64,000 nucleotides of DNA from NCBI RefSeq assembly GCF_013466425.1, contig NZ_CP059165.1:3348001-3412000 (forward strand), written 5' to 3'. The notes beneath the pieces are model-generated. The model ran no database searches, was not told the DNA's origin, and worked only from the letters and a program-made list of their open reading frames with translations. Position numbers and translations under genes: made by a program. Positions 39,350-54,521 of the stretch are shown one piece after another. Position 1 is the first letter of the stretch. Each line of letters begins with the position of its first letter. The stretch is from Mycobacterium vicinigordonae (lineage in GTDB: Bacteria; Actinomycetota; Actinomycetes; Mycobacteriales; Mycobacteriaceae).

Positions 39350-40300
39350 TCAGGGGCGTTGCTTGAGCGCGGGCAGGATCGCGGGCGCGTCCCGCCAGTC
39401 GTCGAGGCCGTACTCGACTGTCCCATAGGACAACTTTCCACCGGTCACCTCGGACCAATGCGCATGATTGAGCTGATGGATCTTGAAGCACCCGTCGAGT
39501 GCTGTCGAGAACCCCATTGCATCGACGGTCTGGTTAACCGACTCCTTGATCAGCAAGGCCGCCATCGTCGGCATCTTGGCGATCCGGCACGCGAACTCGA
39601 CTGTGCTGTCCGCAAGTTCGCCATCCGGAAAGACCTTGCTGACCATTCCCAGTGCGTGGGCTTCGTCGGCGCCGATCGAGTCGCCGGTCAACAGCAGCTC
39701 CTTGGCCTTACGCGGACCGAACTCCCACGGATGGCCGAAGTACTCGACGCCGCACATGCCCAGGCGGGTGCCCACCACGTCCGCGAAGACGGTGGTCTCG
39801 CCCGCCACGATCAAGTCGCAGCACCACGCGAGCATCAGCCCCGCTGACAGGACATTTCCGTGCACCTGCGCGATGGTGATCTTGCGCAGATTGCGCCACC
39901 GCCTGGTGTTCTCGAAGTAGTAGTGCCATTCCTGTCGGTTGCGGGATTCCACTCCGCCGTAGCTGCCGCCGTTGCACTGGTAGGTCGGGTGCTGGCCGGG
40001 CCCTGGCGTGCGTTCGCGGACGTCGTCCGCCGAGCCCAGGTCGTGCCCCGCCGAGAAGGTCGGTCCCGAGCCGCGCAGGATGACCACCCGCACCGTGTCG
40101 TCGGCCTCCGCGAAATCGAACGCTATCCCCAACTCCACGAGTAGCCCACGCGTCTGGGCATTGCGTTGACTAGGGCGCTCAAGGGTGATTACCGCGATCA
40201 GGCCCTCGGCGATCGTCTCGTATTTGAGGAACGAGAACGCTTTCTCCGAACGCTGGCCGTTGGACACGCGTCCGGCCGAACCGGCCCCGATGGCACTCAT
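39350..40300 (-). CDS. echA13: Enoyl-CoA hydratase/isomerase EchA13
   Basis: A 316-residue crotonase-fold protein, first gene of the operon with fadE17 and fadE18. Crotonase marks are [17 protein letters not shown], the oxyanion loop [12 protein letters not shown], and [24 protein letters not shown] 40298-40300 follows AAGGAG at good spacing. Rv1935c is the counterpart. The promoter region upstream shares a 49-bp composite element with yrbE3A. Confidence 0.93.
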
Positions 40301-40404
40301 GATGGCTCCTTGCTGCCCAGGAACGGGTGACCCGTGCGAGGCTACCCGGCGATCTACAAATATGTCCATAGGCGATACGCTATTTCGCAAGATATGTTCG
40401 CATC

Positions 40405-40453
40405 AAAGTACGAGTTGAAATGGTACTTGTAACTCGAGAAGTATCTTGATAGT
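40405..40453. promoter_or_regulatory. Candidate Mce3R composite operator, echA13/mel2 side
   Basis: Read on the minus strand, this 49-bp block starts ACTATCAAGATACTTC and ends in CGTACTTT. It aligns without gaps to 53559-53607 upstream of yrbE3A with 33 of 49 identical bases, strongest at both ends. It also contains an AAGTAC/GTACTT inverted pair (40406-40411 and 40423-40428). It lies 105 bp from the echA13 start and 74 bp from the mel2 start. In M. tuberculosis Mce3R represses both of these units. Confidence 0.7.
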
Positions 40454-40526
40454 ACTGTGGTATACCTACTGACGCCGCATCAGCGTGCCGGTTCACCGGC
40501 CCTGGCCCAACCAAGAAGGGTTAACG

Positions 40527-41641
40527 ATGGAGATCGGAATATTCCTCATGCCGGCCCATCCACCGGAGCGCTCCTTGTACGACGCGACCCAGTGGGACCT
40601 CGACATCATCGAGTTAGCCGACCAACTGGGGTACGTGGAAGCCTGGGTCGGCGAGCACTTCACCGTGCCCTGGGAGCCTATCTGCGCTCCCGATCTGTTG
40701 CTGGCCCAAGCGTTGTTGCGTACCAAGCACATCAAGCTCGCACCCGGCGCGCATCTCTTGCCCTACCACCACCCAGTCGAATTGGCCCATCGCGTAGCCT
40801 ATTTCGATCACCTCGCGCAAGGCCGGTTCATGCTCGGCGTCGGCGCCAGCGGCATCCCGGGCGACTGGGCGCTCTACGACGTCGATGGTAAAAACGGCGA
40901 GCACCCCACCGCGACATGACGCGTGAAGCACTTGAAATCATGCTGCGCATCTGGACTGAAGATGCACCTTGGGAGCATCGCGGAAAGTACTGGAACGCCA
41001 ACGGAATTGCACCAATGTTCGAAGGATTGATGAAGCGTCACATCAAGCCGTTCCAGGAACCGCACCCGCCGATTGGTGTCACAGGGTTCAGCGCAGGATC
41101 CGAAACACTCAAACTGGCCGGCGAACGTGGTTATCTGCCAATGAGTTTAGATCTCAACGCCGAATACGTCGCCACCCACTGGGATGCGGTCTTGGAAGGG
41201 GCAGAACGTAGTGGGCGAAGGCCCGATCGACGCGACTGGCGATTGGTACGCGAGGTGTTGGTAGCTGAAACCGATGAGCAGGCATTCCGCTATGCGGTTG
41301 ACGGCGCTATGGGCCGTGCTATGCGGGAGTATGTGCTGCCGACGTTCCGAATGTTTGGCATGACCAAGTTCTACAAGCACAACCCCTCGGTGCCCGACGA
41401 CGACGTCACGGCGGAGTACCTCGCCGAGAACACCTTCGTGGTCGGCTCGGTGGAAACGGTCGTGGACAAGCTCGAGGCGACCTATGACCAGGTGGGCGGC
41501 TTCGGTCACCTGCTGGTGCTCGGGTTCGACTACCGGGAGCACCCCGGGCCATGGAAGGAGTCGTTGCGGTTGCTTGCCGAGGAAGTGATGCCCGCGCTCA
41601 ACGCCCGAATCGCCAAGAAGCCGGTAGCCCTGGTCGTGTAG
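40527..41641 (+). pseudogene. melF: LLM monooxygenase MelF-like (Rv1936), frameshifted
   Basis: ATG 40527 opens the family N-terminus (MEIGIFLMPAHPPE, VEAWVGEHF), which runs to GKNGEH and then hits TGA 40917-40919. The correct frame resumes at ATG 40916 (MTREALEIMLRIWTED) and continues to 41641 with all later motifs. Five extra bases at 40905-40909 (CCCAC) explain the break; removing them restores GEHRDMTREALEI, close to the remembered Rv1936 sequence. The stop and the second ATG overlap as ATGA, so the two pieces could be translated in tandem. It is the first gene of mel2 and is followed by the Rv1937 homologue 25 bp on. Confidence 0.85.
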
Positions 41642-48785: not shown

Positions 48786-49988
48786 TTACGCCCGACTGGT
48801 CAGGATGGCCATCGCAACTGCGGCGATCTCGTCAGCAATACCGGCGTAACGCGTGAGATGCCATGTGCGAGCGACATCTTCGATAAAGCTGAGCGCCGCG
48901 GCGACCAACAGTCGAGCCTGGACCGCGGTGGTTTCCGGAACCACCTCGGCGATGAGGCCGATCCACACCCCCTCACGGTCCGCTTGGTTGCGTAGATAGC
49001 CGTCGTGCACTTCGCCGGATGCATGTGAGAGTTCAGTGATACTGGCGGCCACCAGGTCGGGGGCATCCAAACTGATCCGGACGTGCCCTTTTACCAGCCC
49101 ACTCAGTCGTTGCGCTGGTTCAGAATTCGCGCGAAGCGCGCGAATGGCCTCCAGGCTGTGCCACTCGTCAAGACGTCGGATGAGCGCGTCGAGGATCGCC
49201 TGCTTGGACGAGAACGAGCGGTACAGACCCGGCCCGGCGATGTTGGCGCCCTTGGCGATTTCATTGGTGCTGACTGCGGGATAACCCCGCGCCCGGAACA
49301 GCTTGGCCCCGGTTGCCAGCAGCGTTTCGTACCGCGAAAACAGCACGTCGTCACCATCGACAGTTTGCAGGGGCTCCAAATTGGCAACCGGCGGTGTTCG
49401 GGCCGCAGCCATGCATGCTTGGTACAGAAGAACTTTGAGATCTTCAGCCGGCGGCATCAGATTGTGCCGACCCAAACTTGTCAGCGTGCTGGATACGGCC
49501 CACGCCCGCACTTCGGAATGCTGCGGGCTCAGACGAGGCACCTCCAGCAGCACGCTGTCGCGCATGCCTGACACGATCGCGTTGATTCGGCGGCGCACCT
49601 CGGCGCGGTCGTCATCCCCCAGGTAGCGGGCCTCGCGCTGCCACAACACCGTCAGGGACCGCGACGCGATGGCTGCGGCGATCAAGTCCGGCAGGTCAAC
49701 ACTCAGCTTTCGAGGCCGCCGCGCGTCGCGGCCTTCGGCCTGGTCCTCGGTGAGACGACGTGCGCTCTGGTACTGGTTCTGCCCGGTCCGGATGGCTTCG
49801 GCGAGCAACGCCTGCTTGTTGTCGTAGTGACGGTACAGCGCGCGTGCGGTGACCCCGGCAGCCTCGGCGATATCCTCCAGCTTGACCGAATGGAAGCCCC
49901 GGTCGATAAACATCCCGACAGCCTGATCCAAGATTTGTTGCTTGCGGTCCTTGGGACGGCGCTTCACGGGTTGGACGGCGGTATCCAT
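48786..49988 (-). CDS. mce3R: Double-TetR repressor Mce3R
   Basis: A 400-residue protein with two tandem TetR units, a layout diagnostic of Mce3R (Rv1963c). HTH 1 is near 20-65 ([26 protein letters not shown]) and HTH 2 near 215-265 ([26 protein letters not shown]). In M. tuberculosis it represses the mce3 operon, Rv1933c-Rv1935c and Rv1936-Rv1941. All three units are in this window and carry a shared motif. ATG 49986-49988 is chosen. A 29-codon leader ORF lies 29 bp upstream. Confidence 0.94.
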
Positions 49989-50017: not shown

Positions 50018-50107
50018 CTAGGGCTTCAACCCGCTCCGCGCCGCGAAATCGGCGAAACCGGTGCAGTCCCTGACGAGGCTCGCGCCGGCTTCTTTGGTAT
50101 CGGTCAT
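50018..50107 (-). CDS. 29-residue leader ORF upstream of mce3R
   Basis: On the minus strand GAGGAG (50117-50122) lies 9 bases before ATG 50105-50107. The frame reads [20 protein letters not shown] and continues to GLKP, stopping at TAG 50018-50020. The mce3R ATG follows 29 bases later. Ribosome site and spacing are better than those of mce3R itself. No family is recognised; it may be a regulatory upstream ORF or a small protein. Confidence 0.5.
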
Positions 50108-50147
50108 ACGAAACCACTCCTCAAGTCAGGACATTCATCAGTGCCGA

Positions 50148-50181
50148 ACTACCAAAATACATCATGCGGCTGATAGTCAGC
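50148..50181. promoter_or_regulatory. Candidate Mce3R autoregulatory site
   Basis: ACTACCAAAATACATC at 50148-50163 matches the 16-bp core of the composite elements at 40438-40453 (minus strand) and 53559-53574, 13 of 16 with each. It is followed by the perfect palindrome GCTGA-TAG-TCAGC (50169-50181). The site is 41 bp upstream of the leader ORF start. Confidence 0.6.
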
Positions 50182-50368
50182 TATGACACAGGATTTCAAC
50201 CGATTTCTGATGGGGACACGCGTACTAGCTATAGACATCAACGCAGCCTGACGGTCCAGTTGACCACCACAGATGACAATCGTGCAGATCAACGATGCAC
50301 GCCAAATCCATCACCCGCCGTCCCTTGGCCAGTAGCGGCCGATCAGGAACGCCGATTCGACCCGGTCC

Positions 50369-51580
50369 TCAACTGCTTCCCGGCGCACTCGCCAGACGCA
50401 CGTAGGCCGATGCCGCCTCGGCGCGGTTGGTCGCGTTGAGCTTGCGTAGCACGCGTTTGACGTGCGACTTGACCGTACCCGCCGAAATCACCAACTCATC
50501 GGCGATCTGCTGATTGGTGCGCCCGGCCGCCATCAACCGGAGCACCTCGACCTCGCGGCGAGTCAACACGGTCATCACTTTGGTCTGCACCTCGGCCAGC
50601 GACCGGGCGGCGGGGCTCCGCGCGATCGGTTCGATCTTGCGTAGATCGAGGTCGGCGTCCTGTAAGGCCCGTGCCGCCTCGTCCGCCGATGCCAACGCCC
50701 GGCGCACCTCCGCGTGCTGCCGACGCATCCGCTCCAGCAGCACCGTGCGCTCGTAGGCATAGCCGAAGCCCTCGGCAAACGCCCATACCGTATCGCGGTC
50801 GATCTCGTCGACCGTGCGACCCGAATACAAGCGGTCGGCATGCAGAAATCCGATTACCTTGCCTGTCGGCATCACGGGCGCGGCCACGTAGGAGTGTGTC
50901 AGCGAGAAATCGATGATGGGCCGGTTGACGCGCGGGTCGTTGCGGGCGTCGCGCACGATGGCGGGCGCATGGCGGCGGATCATCTGCGTTTCCAGCAACA
51001 TGTGGTCCAGCAATGGGGCCACTGCCTGGGCGAAGGCGACCATCTTCTCGGCCCCGGCGCTGTCCTCGCCGAAATATGCCGATTCCATCACCATTCGACC
51101 CTCGTGCACCCGGAAGAGCACGGCCCGGTCAAACCCGCACGACTCCACCAATTCTCTTGGCGCCCGGTCCACGACAGTCGCGACATCCTCGACAGCGCGT
51201 AGCTTGCTCAGGCCCTCCTGTACCTGTAACAACGCGAGTGTGCGCCGTTTGGCTCCGTCCTCGATGAGGTCGCGCTCCAGCGATGACAAATCCAGCACCG
51301 CCTCGAGTGCGTTGAGAGCCCGGGCATCCCCGAGTTCCTCCAGCGCGGCCCGCACGATGCCCGCGTTGGTATCGACCGCCTCTGCCACCATCGCCGTCGG
51401 GTCATCGGTGGGATCGACTCCCCAGCCGGCGAATGCCTCCCGGTAGTGAAGCTCGGCGGCGGACTCCCGTACCGGTCGCGACGCCCAACCGGGATGGTCG
51501 CCCTCGGCCAGCGTGGCGAGCGATGCGGGATCTGGCAAATCGCTGACATCGATCACGTTCCCACTGTCCACCCTCGGCAC
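50369..51580 (-). CDS. GAF-LuxR transcriptional regulator
   Basis: A 403-residue regulator starting at GTG 51578-51580. The middle (about 115-265) resembles a GAF sensor domain ([26 protein letters not shown]). The C-terminus is a LuxR HTH ([43 protein letters not shown]). It is divergent from the P450 gene, with palindromes between them, so it probably controls that operon. It is not part of the H37Rv mce3 locus. Confidence 0.87.
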
Positions 51581-51604
51581 GACGGCCGGGGCGAAAAGCC
51601 GAAA

Positions 51605-51644
51605 CTGCCCTCCTTAGGGGGCAGTAGTCCTCCCCATCGGGGGA
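51605..51644. promoter_or_regulatory. Inverted repeats between LuxR regulator and P450 gene
   Basis: CTGCCC (51605-51610) and GGGCAG (51619-51624) form a perfect inverted repeat around TCCTTAGG. TCCCC (51631-51635) and GGGGA (51640-51644) form a second. Both lie in the 100-bp divergent promoter and are candidate operators. Confidence 0.5.
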
Positions 51645-51680
51645 TCGCTTTATCTCCCCGGCTGACAGAGGCTGGTCGCC

Positions 51681-52928
51681 ATGCCAGTCACGACCGCTTC
51701 CCGCCTCGAAATGCTCACCACCCCGCAGGGCATCGCCAACCCGTACCCGCTGTACGACGAGCTACGTGATGCCTCTCCCGTTGCGGGATACCGAGATTGG
51801 CCGCCGGGAACTATTCCCGGCGCCGACGAGCCGGTCACCGCCTGGGCGCTCTTCCGGTACGACCAGGTCCACGAAGCCGCGCGGGACAGCGCGACCTTCT
51901 CATCCCGAGACCCATTGCAGGAGGCCTCCTCGGCGCCCAGCCTGATGCTGGTCAACACCGATCCGCCCAAGCATGAGGTTGAACGAAAACTGGTGAGCCA
52001 GGCGTTTTCTCCGCGCCGGGTCAAGCGCCTCGAGGGTTGGCTCAACGAACTGGTGCCGCAGTTACTCGAGGACCTCGACAATTCGTCCCGGCAAAGCCGG
52101 GTCGAAGTGATGGAGTTCGCCGCCGAGGTGCCGACTCGGGCCATGGTGCGCCTGCTGGGACTGCCCGACGGCGACCACGTCCGCTTCCGCCGCTGGGCCA
52201 ATGCATTCATGCTGTCCTCCTCGCTCACCCCGGAAGAACGAATCGCCAGCAACCAGGAGATGGTCGCGACATTCGCCAACCGGCTGGCGGAGCACACAAT
52301 ACGACTGGCCGAGAGCGCGCCCGGCGACGACGTCGAGGACGCCGAAGATCTCATCTCAGCCCTGTTGCGCGCCGAAGTGGACGGGCAGCGCCTCACACCT
52401 GAGGAGATTGTCCGGTTCTGCGTCACCCTCGTCGTCGCGGGCAGCGAGACCACCACCTTCCTGATCGGCAATCTGCTGCACGCGCTGGCACGCGAGCCCG
52501 AGGTGACCGCACGCATTCGCGCCGACCGCACCCTGCTGAATCTCTTTGTCGAAGAGACACTTCGGCTCGACGGTCCACCGCAACGGCTGTTCCGCATCGC
52601 CACCCGCGATGTCGAGGTCGGCGGCAAGATGATCCGGAAAGGAGAGTGGGTTGCCCTGTTCTTCGGTGCGGCCAACCGCGACCCCGCGGTATTCCACGCC
52701 CCCGCGATACTGGACATCGACCGGCCTAACATTCGCCAGCAACTCTCGCTGGGCCACGGTCTGCACTTCTGCCTCGGCGCGTCGCTGGCGCGCCTGGAGG
52801 TGATCGCGGTGCTCAACGCCGTGTTGGATCGCTATCGGACGATAGCGCTGACCGACGACCCGGGCACCAAACAGACCGCCAGCCTGCTCACCCACGCCTA
52901 CGTCCGGCTGCCGCTGCACCTGTCATGA
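51681..52928 (+). CDS. Cytochrome P450
   Basis: A 415-residue soluble bacterial P450. The I-helix oxygen motif is AGSETTTF, the ExxR is in EETLRLDG, and the heme thiolate loop is LGHGLHFCLGASLARLE. It would hydroxylate a small hydrophobic substrate, receiving electrons from the ferredoxin encoded two genes on. Its TGA overlaps the next ATG. The family number is not recognised. Confidence 0.93.
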   Translation: MPVTTASRLEMLTTPQGIANPYPLYDELRDASPVAGYRDWPPGTIPGADEPVTAWALFRYDQVHEAARDSATFSSRDPLQEASSAPSLMLVNTDPPKHEVERKLVSQAFSPRRVKRLEGWLNELVPQLLEDLDNSSRQSRVEVMEFAAEVPTRAMVRLLGLPDGDHVRFRRWANAFMLSSSLTPEERIASNQEMVATFANRLAEHTIRLAESAPGDDVEDAEDLISALLRAEVDGQRLTPEEIVRFCVTLVVAGSETTTFLIGNLLHALAREPEVTARIRADRTLLNLFVEETLRLDGPPQRLFRIATRDVEVGGKMIRKGEWVALFFGAANRDPAVFHAPAILDIDRPNIRQQLSLGHGLHFCLGASLARLEVIAVLNAVLDRYRTIALTDDPGTKQTASLLTHAYVRLPLHLS

Positions 52929-53320
52929 CCCGCAATATCGAAGCAACACAGGCGATTTACGCCGCGGTGCCCGCCGGAGATCTCAACACGGTGCTTGCAC
53001 ATCTCGATCCAGAGGTGCGCATCACCTACTACGGCACCGAAAAGATCCCGTACGCAGGTGATTACCGAGGTATCGACGAGGCGATCACTTTCCTCGGCAA
53101 GGTGGGAAATGCTGTCGAGATCATCGCCATGGAGGCGTGGAAGTTCATCGAACAGGGCGACGACCTGGCGACCTGGGGCAGCCAACGTTTCCGTCGACTC
53201 GAGACCGGACTGGAGTGGGAAACCGAGTTCGCACATATCATCACGTTGCGCGACGGTCGCTGGCTGCATTTCCGCGACTTCGCCAATTCGGCTGCGGCGC
53301 TTGAGGTATTCGACACATGA
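52925..53320 (+). CDS. SnoaL-like protein of the P450 operon
   Basis: A 131-residue NTF2/SnoaL-fold protein (TRNIEATQAIYAAVPAGDLNTVLAHLDPEVRITYYGTE) ending with WLHFRDFANSAAALEVF. It is coupled to the P450 by ATGA (52925-52928) and to the ferredoxin by ATGA (53317-53320). It may bind or isomerise the P450 product; this is inference from position. Confidence 0.82.
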   Translation: MTRNIEATQAIYAAVPAGDLNTVLAHLDPEVRITYYGTEKIPYAGDYRGIDEAITFLGKVGNAVEIIAMEAWKFIEQGDDLATWGSQRFRRLETGLEWETEFAHIITLRDGRWLHFRDFANSAAALEVFDT

Positions 53321-53511
53321 AGGTCGAGGCCGACCGCGAGGTCTGCATCTCCGCAGGCACGTGTGTGATGACCGCAGGTGCGGTCTTCGACCAGGACACC
53401 GACGGAATCGTCCGGCTTGTCGGCGCCGAAGTGCCCGTGGGCGAGGAACTCCGGGCGCACAACGCCGTCAAATTGTGTCCCTCCGGAGCGCTGCAAGTGG
53501 CGCGGGAGTAA
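53317..53511 (+). CDS. 3Fe-4S ferredoxin of the P450 operon
   Basis: A 64-residue ferredoxin. The cluster motif is C-x2-A-x2-C (CISAGTC) with a distal CP (LCPSGAL). Alanine replaces the usual second cysteine, as in P450-partner 3Fe-4S ferredoxins. It is translationally coupled to the upstream gene and is the natural electron donor to the P450. Confidence 0.93.
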   Translation: MKVEADREVCISAGTCVMTAGAVFDQDTDGIVRLVGAEVPVGEELRAHNAVKLCPSGALQVARE

Positions 53512-53558
53512 CCGCTGAGCATGCGCAAGCAAACGTCGTCAACGCCCCACATGCAGTT

Positions 53559-53607
53559 ACTGGCAAGATACATCACCAATCGCAATAACTACTTAACTTT
53601 GTACTTT
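53559..53607. promoter_or_regulatory. Candidate Mce3R composite operator, yrbE3A side
   Basis: The block begins ACTGGCAAGATACATC and ends TTTGTACTTT. It matches the minus strand of 40405-40453 over 49 bases without gaps (33 identical). It lies 131 bp upstream of the yrbE3A GTG, in the 227-bp gap after the ferredoxin gene, the right place for mce3 operon control. Confidence 0.7.
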
Positions 53608-53738
53608 ACTGGCCTTGAGGAAACGAATTCGCGTATTGCCTATGGACATGTTGGGCGTGGTCCGCGTACCCTCACCGGTGTCACTCGTCCAACTCGACCC
53701 GCCCGGGGGATCGGCGTGAACATTTCCGCGGAGTCACG

Positions 53739-54521
53739 GTGACCGCGATCGGCCAGGTGGCCCTTCCGGTCGCCAAGCCGGTACTCGCACTGGGCGACTT
53801 CTTCGCGACCACATTGGACACCTTCGTCGCAATGTTTAGGCGGCCCTTCGCGTGGCGCGAATACTTGCTGCAATGCTGGTTCGTGGCTAGAGTCTCGACG
53901 CTGCCCGGGATATTGATGACCATCCCGTGGGCGGTGATCTCGGGATTCCTGTTCAACGTCCTGCTGACCGACATCGGTGCCGCCGACTTCTCCGGCACCG
54001 GCTGCGCCATTTTCACAGTCGACCAGAGCGCACCCATTGTCACCGTCCTGGTCGTCGCGGGCGCCGGCTCCACCGCCATGTGCGCAGACCTGGGAGCGCG
54101 GACCATCCGTGAGGAACTCGACGCATTGCGGGTGATGGGCATCAATCCGATTCAGACGCTGGCAGTTCCGCGAGTCCTGGCCGCGACCACTGTGTCGCTG
54201 GCACTCAGTTCGGTCGTGACCGCGACCGGTCTACTCGGCGCGTTCTTCTGCTCGGTATTCCTGATGCATGTCTCGGCCGGCGCGTGGGTTACCGGCCTGA
54301 CCACCCTGACCCACAGCGTCGACGTGGTCATCTCGATGATCAAGGCGACGCTGTTCGGACTGATGGCTGGCCTGATCGCCTGCTATAAGGGCATGTCGGT
54401 GGGCGGCGGGCCGGCCGGGGTGGGTCGCGCGGTTAACGAAACAGTGGTTTTCGCCTTCATCGTCTTGTTTGTCATCAACATCATCGTCACTGCCGTCGGC
54501 ATGCCGTTCATGGTGTCCTGA
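53739..54521 (+). CDS. yrbE3A: YrbE3A, MlaE-type permease
   Basis: A 260-residue inner-membrane permease of the MlaE/YrbE family that forms the Mce transporter core with YrbE3B. Hydrophobic segments fill the second two-thirds, and the conserved LGARTIREELDALRVMGINPI loop is clear. GTG 53739 follows a GGAG. It is the first gene of the mce3 operon, which imports lipids with an Mce tunnel. Confidence 0.95.
   Translation: MTAIGQVALPVAKPVLALGDFFATTLDTFVAMFRRPFAWREYLLQCWFVARVSTLPGILMTIPWAVISGFLFNVLLTDIGAADFSGTGCAIFTVDQSAPIVTVLVVAGAGSTAMCADLGARTIREELDALRVMGINPIQTLAVPRVLAATTVSLALSSVVTATGLLGAFFCSVFLMHVSAGAWVTGLTTLTHSVDVVISMIKATLFGLMAGLIACYKGMSVGGGPAGVGRAVNETVVFAFIVLFVINIIVTAVGMPFMVS

What the first reader, a model, noticed from the sequence alone, without database searches (positions are those of the whole stretch)
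40405..40453. A 49-bp composite element shared by the echA13/mel2 and yrbE3A promoters
The minus strand of 40405-40453 and the plus strand of 53559-53607 align without gaps over 49 bp with 33 identities, counted by hand. Similarity is highest at the two ends: core ACTNNCAAGATACWTC and end GTACTTT. The two regions sit 13 kb apart in unrelated promoters. Both belong to the set of operons that Mce3R represses in M. tuberculosis, so a two-site operator read by the two HTH domains of Mce3R is a plausible explanation. It would link lipid import (mce3) to FadE17/18-EchA13 and mel2 enzymes.
Basis: partly seen in the sequence, partly recalled or inferred. Interest (0 to 1): 0.85.

Follow-up and report, generated by a model that had tools for sequence, protein, structure and literature searches.

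The report
Two-box Mce3R repressor operator, three copies
The shared DNA stretch is one half of the likely landing site of Mce3R, a known mycobacterial repressor of lipid-import and lipid-breakdown genes; the full site is two spaced copies of the same short word and occurs at three promoters in this genome.

Summary
The 49-bp match is real: 33 of 49, above the best of 1000 shuffled pairs (30). It is the upstream half of a ~95-bp two-box operator. A second box (CGTATYGCCTATGGACAT) starts 76-77 bp after the first in both promoters, and a third operator lies before mce3R at 50145-50241. A profile trained without this window finds exactly these three places in 6.27 Mb at E<=10. In 198 genomes of the genus, own included, the two-box pattern occurs in 34, the same 34 that encode Mce3R. 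Best explanation: Mce3R operators. The regulon, the yrbE3A operator and the Mce3R-DNA structure (9b7y) are published for M. tuberculosis (PMC11667970), so the core claim is known. Not in the paper text I read: the boxes are direct repeats of one word (79 of 83), and box B covers the likely -35 of the echA13-side and yrbE3A promoters, with TANNNT exactly 18 nt on in 50 of 51. No binding to these sequences was tested.

The parts
40362..40456 (-). two-box operator of the echA13 (fadE17/18) | mel2 divergent promoter region
40436..40456 (-). box A (AGTACTATCAAGATACTTCTC)
   Evidence: the box PWM finds no consistent third box here
40359..40379 (-). box B (CGTATCGCCTATGGACATATT)
40363..40368 (-). candidate -35 (TGGACA) of the echA13-side promoter, inside box B
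   Evidence: TANNNT at exactly 18 nt in 28 of 28 mel2-type operators
40339..40344 (-). candidate -10 (TAGCCT), 18 nt after the -35
53556..53652 (+). two-box operator of the mce3 operon (yrbE3A)
   Evidence: profile hit 53558-53649, 47.5 bits, E=9.1e-12
53556..53576 (+). box A
53632..53652 (+). box B (CGTATTGCCTATGGACATGTT), starts 107 bp before the yrbE3A start codon
   Evidence: the published high-affinity site is about 100 bp upstream (PMC11667970)
53643..53648 (+). candidate -35 (TGGACA) of yrbE3A inside box B
53667..53672 (+). candidate -10 (TACCCT), 18 nt after the -35
50145..50241 (+). third two-box operator, in the promoter region of mce3R itself (box A 50145-50165, box B 50221-50241)
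   Evidence: profile E=1.1e-5
48786..49988 (-). mce3R: double-TetR repressor, 400 aa; matches 9b7y over residues 3-399, E=6.6e-200
   Evidence: 18 of 19 DNA-contact residues named in PMC11667970 identical, one R to K (counted by hand)
53739..54521 (+). yrbE3A, first gene of mce3
39350..40300 (-). echA13-like enoyl-CoA hydratase, downstream of box B
40527..41641 (+). mel2 first gene, luciferase-like monooxygenase, in two overlapping reading frames (40527-40919 and 40916-41641)

Best explanation
The shared element is part of an Mce3R operator. Each operator is two direct copies of one asymmetric ~18-21-bp word, consensus by eye (C/A)GTAYTRGCWAKRKACAT, 76-77 bp apart, with a conserved middle element between. 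One Mce3R chain (two unlike TetR halves folded as one pseudo-dimer) reads one box with both HTHs; two boxes take two chains, probably cooperatively. Box B overlies the likely -35 hexamer TGGACA of the echA13-side and yrbE3A promoters, so bound Mce3R would exclude RNA polymerase. Box A faces the divergent gene (mel2 or mce3R) and probably blocks that promoter. An inducer would release all three operators together, coupling lipid import (mce3), acyl-CoA oxidation enzymes, mel2 and autoregulation. Shown here: sequence, spacing, specificity, co-occurrence, overlap with a -35/-10-like pair. Published for M. tuberculosis: repression, footprints, affinities, structure. Inferred: binding and repression in this organism, occlusion, joint release.
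For: Profile built from 75 operators of other mycobacteria, window excluded, hits exactly 3 places in the 6.27-Mb genome at E<=10; all 116 first-look candidates were scored. Two-box pattern: 3 places, reversed control 0. 39 of 39 mycobacterial mce3R loci hold at least one operator, 0 of 2 Pseudonocardia double-TetR loci do. 34 of 198 genomes of the genus, own included, have Mce3R; the same 34 have the pattern and the profile hit; 85 of 86 profile hits lie within 13.6 kb of mce3R, the other on another contig. The box B PWM's best non-self place is box A, same strand and register, in 79 of 83 operators; 0 of 500 column permutations match. TANNNT exactly 18 nt after box B GACA: 28 of 28 mel2-type, 22 of 23 yrbE3A-type; background 53 of 9537 positions. 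Published: two 25-bp asymmetric sites 53 bp apart, the high-affinity one about 100 bp upstream of yrbE3A, structure 9b7y.
Against: No binding, footprint or expression was measured for these sequences. The published probe letters (Fig. 3B, Table S3) and the M. tuberculosis genome were not held, so identity of the boxes with published regions 1 and 3 rests on spacing, position and description. Single boxes are not specific: the box B core with up to 2 mismatches gives 19 hits against 21 control hits. The mce3R-type operators are weaker (window copy E=1.1e-5) and mostly lack the 18-nt -10 (18 nt in 3 of 28, 17 nt in 12 of 28; 4 of 32 had no GACAT and were left out). L033 shows no mce3R-side operator at the threshold although its mce3R is far from yrbE3A. 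The middle element is conserved but unexplained. Pattern and profile were designed after seeing the named loci, and many of the 198 genomes are probably the same species as those loci.
Confidence: 0.93

Rival explanations
1. One reading: a single 49-bp composite in which the two ends are two half-operators, one read by each HTH domain of Mce3R.
For: Identity peaks at the two ends of the 49 bp; both ends lie in columns conserved in relatives.
Against: The published structure has both HTHs in one ~27-bp site. The GTACTTT end is not a copy of the box: the box PWM finds no consistent place in the middle. The second box starts 76-77 bp after the first, outside the 49 bp.
Confidence: 0.04
2. The boxes are mainly promoter elements (-35/-10) kept by RNA polymerase, not repressor sites.
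For: Box B contains TGGACA with TANNNT 18 nt away in 50 of 51.
Against: Box A repeats the same word in the same orientation. The exact match with Mce3R in 198 genomes and absence elsewhere in the genome are not expected of a promoter. mce3R-type operators keep box B while mostly lacking the 18-nt -10.
Confidence: 0.02
3. The similarity only reflects duplication of a promoter, without selection on the boxes.
For: Some loci carry tandem operators (L007, 222 bp apart), so duplication probably occurred.
Against: Most flank and spacer columns are near background while the boxes stay alike across 39 mycobacterial loci.
Confidence: 0.01

Closest known systems
Mce3R operator upstream of yrbE3A in M. 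tuberculosis (Panagoda et al. 2024, PMC11667970, PDB 9b7y; Santangelo et al. 2009, not held, known here only through that paper)
   Same: Two asymmetric sites, published 25 bp each and 53 bp apart, so about 78 bp start to start (here 75-78); the high-affinity one about 100 bp before yrbE3A (here 107); a conserved middle region; double-TetR Mce3R with 18 of 19 named contact residues identical.
   Different: Different species; luxR-type, P450 and ferredoxin genes lie between mce3R and yrbE3A, with a separate operator for each; a full two-box operator at echA13/mel2, where the paper reports predicted motifs only; the direct-repeat and -35 readings are not in the text I read.
Classical TetR-family palindromic operators (KstR, KstR2, BkaR; named as palindromic in PMC4482099, section 11 read)
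   Same: TetR-type HTH repressor, autoregulated.
   Different: The two boxes relate as direct, not inverted, copies (mean identity 0.511 direct in register, best inverted 0.355).

Membership tests
Mce3R operator (as in PMC11667970) | two ~25-bp asymmetric sites separated by ~53 bp | tested here: met
Mce3R operator (as in PMC11667970) | downstream site about 100 bp before the yrbE3A start | tested here: met
   box B starts 107 bp upstream
Mce3R operator (as in PMC11667970) | Mce3R ortholog with the DNA-contact residues in the genome | tested here: met
   P0001 against 9b7y, E=6.6e-200; 18 of 19 listed residues identical, R9 is K
Mce3R operator (as in PMC11667970) | operator present only where Mce3R is present | tested here: met
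   same 34 of 198 genomes, own included; Mce3R was not searched in the larger sample (69 of 396 with a profile hit)
Mce3R operator (as in PMC11667970) | letters equal to published probe A regions 1 and 3 | not tested
   figure and Table S3 letters not held; M. tuberculosis genome not found in the sample (nearest in size G165, Mce3R about 90% alike by eye)
Mce3R operator (as in PMC11667970) | protein binding, nM affinity | not testable with these tools
   needs EMSA or footprint
palindromic TetR operator | inverted repeat read by a symmetric dimer | tested here: not met
   box A and box B are direct repeats; weak inverted symmetry inside one box (GTA...KAC) was seen by eye only

The most novel reading that the evidence does not exclude
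The three operators act as one bridged repression hub. Mce3R is a C2 dimer with one box-binding face per chain, and in the published cryo-EM 63% of particles held two duplexes. The two boxes of an operator are direct repeats, so one dimer cannot by symmetry fill both on unbent DNA (inference). Each bound dimer then has a free face that can hold a box of another operator, and the near-constant 76-77-bp spacing at all three promoters would let two dimers zip two operators together, tying mce3, echA13/mel2 and mce3R into one switch. Looping between operators is already suggested in PMC11667970; the direct-repeat and equal-spacing argument is added here.
Probability: 0.2. Interest if true: 0.65.

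Novelty: new member of a known kind. Interest (0 to 1): 0.42.

Why it matters
It gives Mce3R an explicit, genome-searchable recognition word and operator grammar (two direct asymmetric boxes, 76-77 bp, box B on a likely -35). It shows that echA13/mel2, mce3 and mce3R promoters share it in mycobacteria with Mce3R, and that in this genome no further place reaches the profile threshold. That turns a loosely described non-palindromic operator into a testable model of how a single-chain double TetR reads DNA and couples lipid import to lipid breakdown.

Tried and rejected
Single-box searches: the box B core with up to 2 mismatches is at background in the own genome (19 hits, 21 control); box A with up to 1 mismatch gives only the 3 known places, and 3 more at 2 mismatches against 4 control hits. 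A first, stricter two-box pattern hit only the mce3R copy. BLAST of the operator as DNA in relatives mostly fails: 8 of 148 genomes, own included, at E<=0.1. No plasmid match. A third Mce3R box in the middle element: no consistent place. Inverted relation of the boxes: weaker than direct. The leftward -10 of mel2 and mce3R: several candidates seen in the print, none decided. Rows dropped: the L013 spacing-66 hit (83 of 84 kept); for the profile 75 of 83 used, without the window's 3, four weak mce3R-type operators and one tandem copy in L007. The 83 include the window's three.

Full report
Observation. In 1000 pairs of first-order Markov sequences made from the two intergenic regions, searched in both orientations, the best 49-mer averaged 25.1 and never exceeded 30. 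The same scan showed a better-matching neighbour: 36 of 49 starting at 40386(-)/53625(+), one base out of register.

Anatomy. Box A is AGTACTATCAAGATACTTC from 40456(-) and GTTACTGGCAAGATACATC from 53556(+). Box B is CGTATCGCCTATGGACAT from 40379(-) and CGTATTGCCTATGGACAT from 53632(+), 77 and 76 bp after box A. A third pair, 76 bp apart, lies at 50145 and 50221(+), in front of mce3R. The window does not have the M. tuberculosis gene order: a luxR-type gene, a cytochrome P450 and a ferredoxin lie between mce3R (48786-49988, minus) and yrbE3A (53739, plus). The species was not identified. Mce3R here matches the solved M. tuberculosis Mce3R (9b7y) over residues 3-399. Of 19 DNA-contact residues named in PMC11667970, 18 are identical and R9 is K (counted by hand on the alignment).

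Specificity. A sequence profile built from 75 operators of other mycobacteria, with none of the window's three, was run on the whole 6.27-Mb genome. It returned exactly three places at E<=10: 3.5e-12 (echA13/mel2), 9.1e-12 (yrbE3A) and 1.1e-5 (mce3R). A pattern of both boxes with 40-70 bases between gave the same three places and no hit for the reversed control. Box B alone with up to two mismatches is at background (19 hits, 21 control hits), so specificity comes from the pair.

Conservation. One scan with Mce3R fetched 41 loci: 39 mycobacterial (a few from the same species) and 2 Pseudonocardia. All 39 mycobacterial loci hold at least one two-box operator and neither Pseudonocardia locus does; the best score over one shuffle of each of 42 sequences was -2.9, against 24 to 78 for the hits. 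The PWM was refined on these same loci, so this count is partly circular. The 83 operators kept, the window's three included, were assigned by nearest gene start to three promoter types: echA13/mel2 (28), yrbE3A (23) and mce3R (32). Box start to box start is 75-78 bp in all 83, 76 or 77 in 79. In a sample of 198 genomes of the genus, own included, Mce3R (E<=1e-60) occurs in 34, the two-box pattern in 34 with zero control hits and the profile in 34. The three sets are identical. Of 86 profile hits, 85 lie within 13.6 kb of mce3R and the other is on a different contig. Many of these genomes are probably the same species as the named loci. In a larger sample the profile hit 69 of 396 genomes; Mce3R was not searched there. 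Against a uniform picture: L033 shows no mce3R-side operator at the threshold, and species with mce3R next to yrbE3A often share one operator.

Direct repeats. A PWM made from the box B copies was scanned over each operator with box B left out. Its best place is box A, same strand and same register, in 79 of 83 operators. Mean identity of box A and box B is 0.511 in register, at most 0.375 at the other direct offsets tried (-7 to +7), and at most 0.355 inverted. Column permutation of the matrix never reached the observed similarity (0 of 500). The consensus, combined by eye, is (C/A)GTAYTRGCWAKRKACAT. The middle element is not a third box by this test.

Promoter overlap. Box B ends in TGGACA plus T. 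Exactly 18 nt after GACA a TANNNT hexamer follows in 28 of 28 mel2-type and 22 of 23 yrbE3A-type operators; the exception is the second tandem copy in L007. The background frequency of TANNNT in the 200 nt downstream is 53 of 9537 positions. In this window the pairs are TGGACA-N18-TAGCCT on the echA13 side and TGGACA-N18-TACCCT before yrbE3A. Box B therefore probably sits on the -35 of these promoters. In the mce3R-type operators this geometry is mostly absent (18 nt in 3 of 28, 17 nt in 12 of 28, four of 32 left out for lack of GACAT), while box B is kept. No transcription start was measured. Box A faces mel2 or mce3R, but the leftward promoter is not resolved.

What is known. Of PMC11667970 I read abstract and introduction, part 1 of 2 of Methods, all three parts of Results and Discussion, and passages. 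Mce3R is a single-chain double TetR. Santangelo 2009, as told there, found two protected regions of about 33 and 32 bp between mce3R and yrbE3A and predicted motifs there and between Rv1935c and Rv1936. The operator is two 25-bp asymmetric sites separated by 53 bp, the better one about 100 bp upstream. Kd is 2.4 nM for the whole probe, and 49 and 59 nM for the two probes without native region 1. Both HTHs of one chain bind region 3, and 63% of particles were a dimer on two duplexes. The words 'repeat' and 'RNA polymerase' do not occur in its main text. The authors suggest looping between operators. PMC2277422 (abstract and passages) shows repression of mce3 and autoregulation, and proposed sites in both promoter regions of an 880-bp intergenic region. 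PMC11036813 (passages) states that Mce3R controls mel2 genes. PMC4482099 (passages and section 11) calls the Mce3R motif large, complex and not palindromic. PMC10843139 (abstract and passages) is on physiology. In the listings of my searches (40 of 64, 14 of 14, 4 of 4, 10 of 961) I saw no other title on this operator's structure. Most subscription papers, Santangelo 2009 among them, are not held.

Verdict. The reading of the 49 bp as two half-sites, one for each HTH, is not: each box is a complete site for one chain by the published structure, and the partner box lies outside the interval. The core is known in M. tuberculosis. What this adds is the full operator at echA13/mel2, a third operator at mce3R in a rearranged locus, the direct-repeat grammar with near-fixed spacing, the -35 overlap, and the exact match between operator and regulator in the genus sample. 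Binding in this organism, occlusion of RNA polymerase, and bridging of operators are inferences.

Noticed in passing
window 50018-50107 (-): A 29-aa reading frame with an AGGAG before it, upstream of mce3R, looks like the remnant of a ~130-aa limonene-epoxide-hydrolase/SnoaL-like gene seen at that place in L005, L006, L008, L013, L016 and L017 (Pfam run on the L013 copy only).
   Followed up: partly
window 40527-41641 (+): The first mel2 gene (luciferase-like monooxygenase) is split over two overlapping reading frames here; both pieces match the same Pfam family. Related loci align to both pieces.
   Followed up: partly
operators; window 40402-40428 (-) and 53584-53610 (+): A middle element (about TTTGCWTGGNNATTTAC, by eye) is conserved at nearly fixed distance from box A in relatives, with CAAG invariant only in the mel2 type; it is not an Mce3R box by the PWM test and its role is unexplained.
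   Followed up: partly
L007:9234-9549; L150:696-1102: Tandem operators 222 bp (L007) and 315 bp (G165) apart between mce3R and yrbE3A. G165's Mce3R is closer to the M. tuberculosis protein than the window's is (727 against 667 bits), so M. tuberculosis may also have a second operator nearer mce3R.
   Followed up: partly
window 50369-53514: A luxR-type gene, P450 and ferredoxin sit between mce3R and yrbE3A with one same-orientation operator at each end; other loci have a similar, partial or no island.
   Followed up: no
G185:C1 near 12965 and 5936830: One congener shows the mce3R-operator cluster near both ends of its single contig, one mce3R match only partial; may be an assembly overlap.
   Followed up: no
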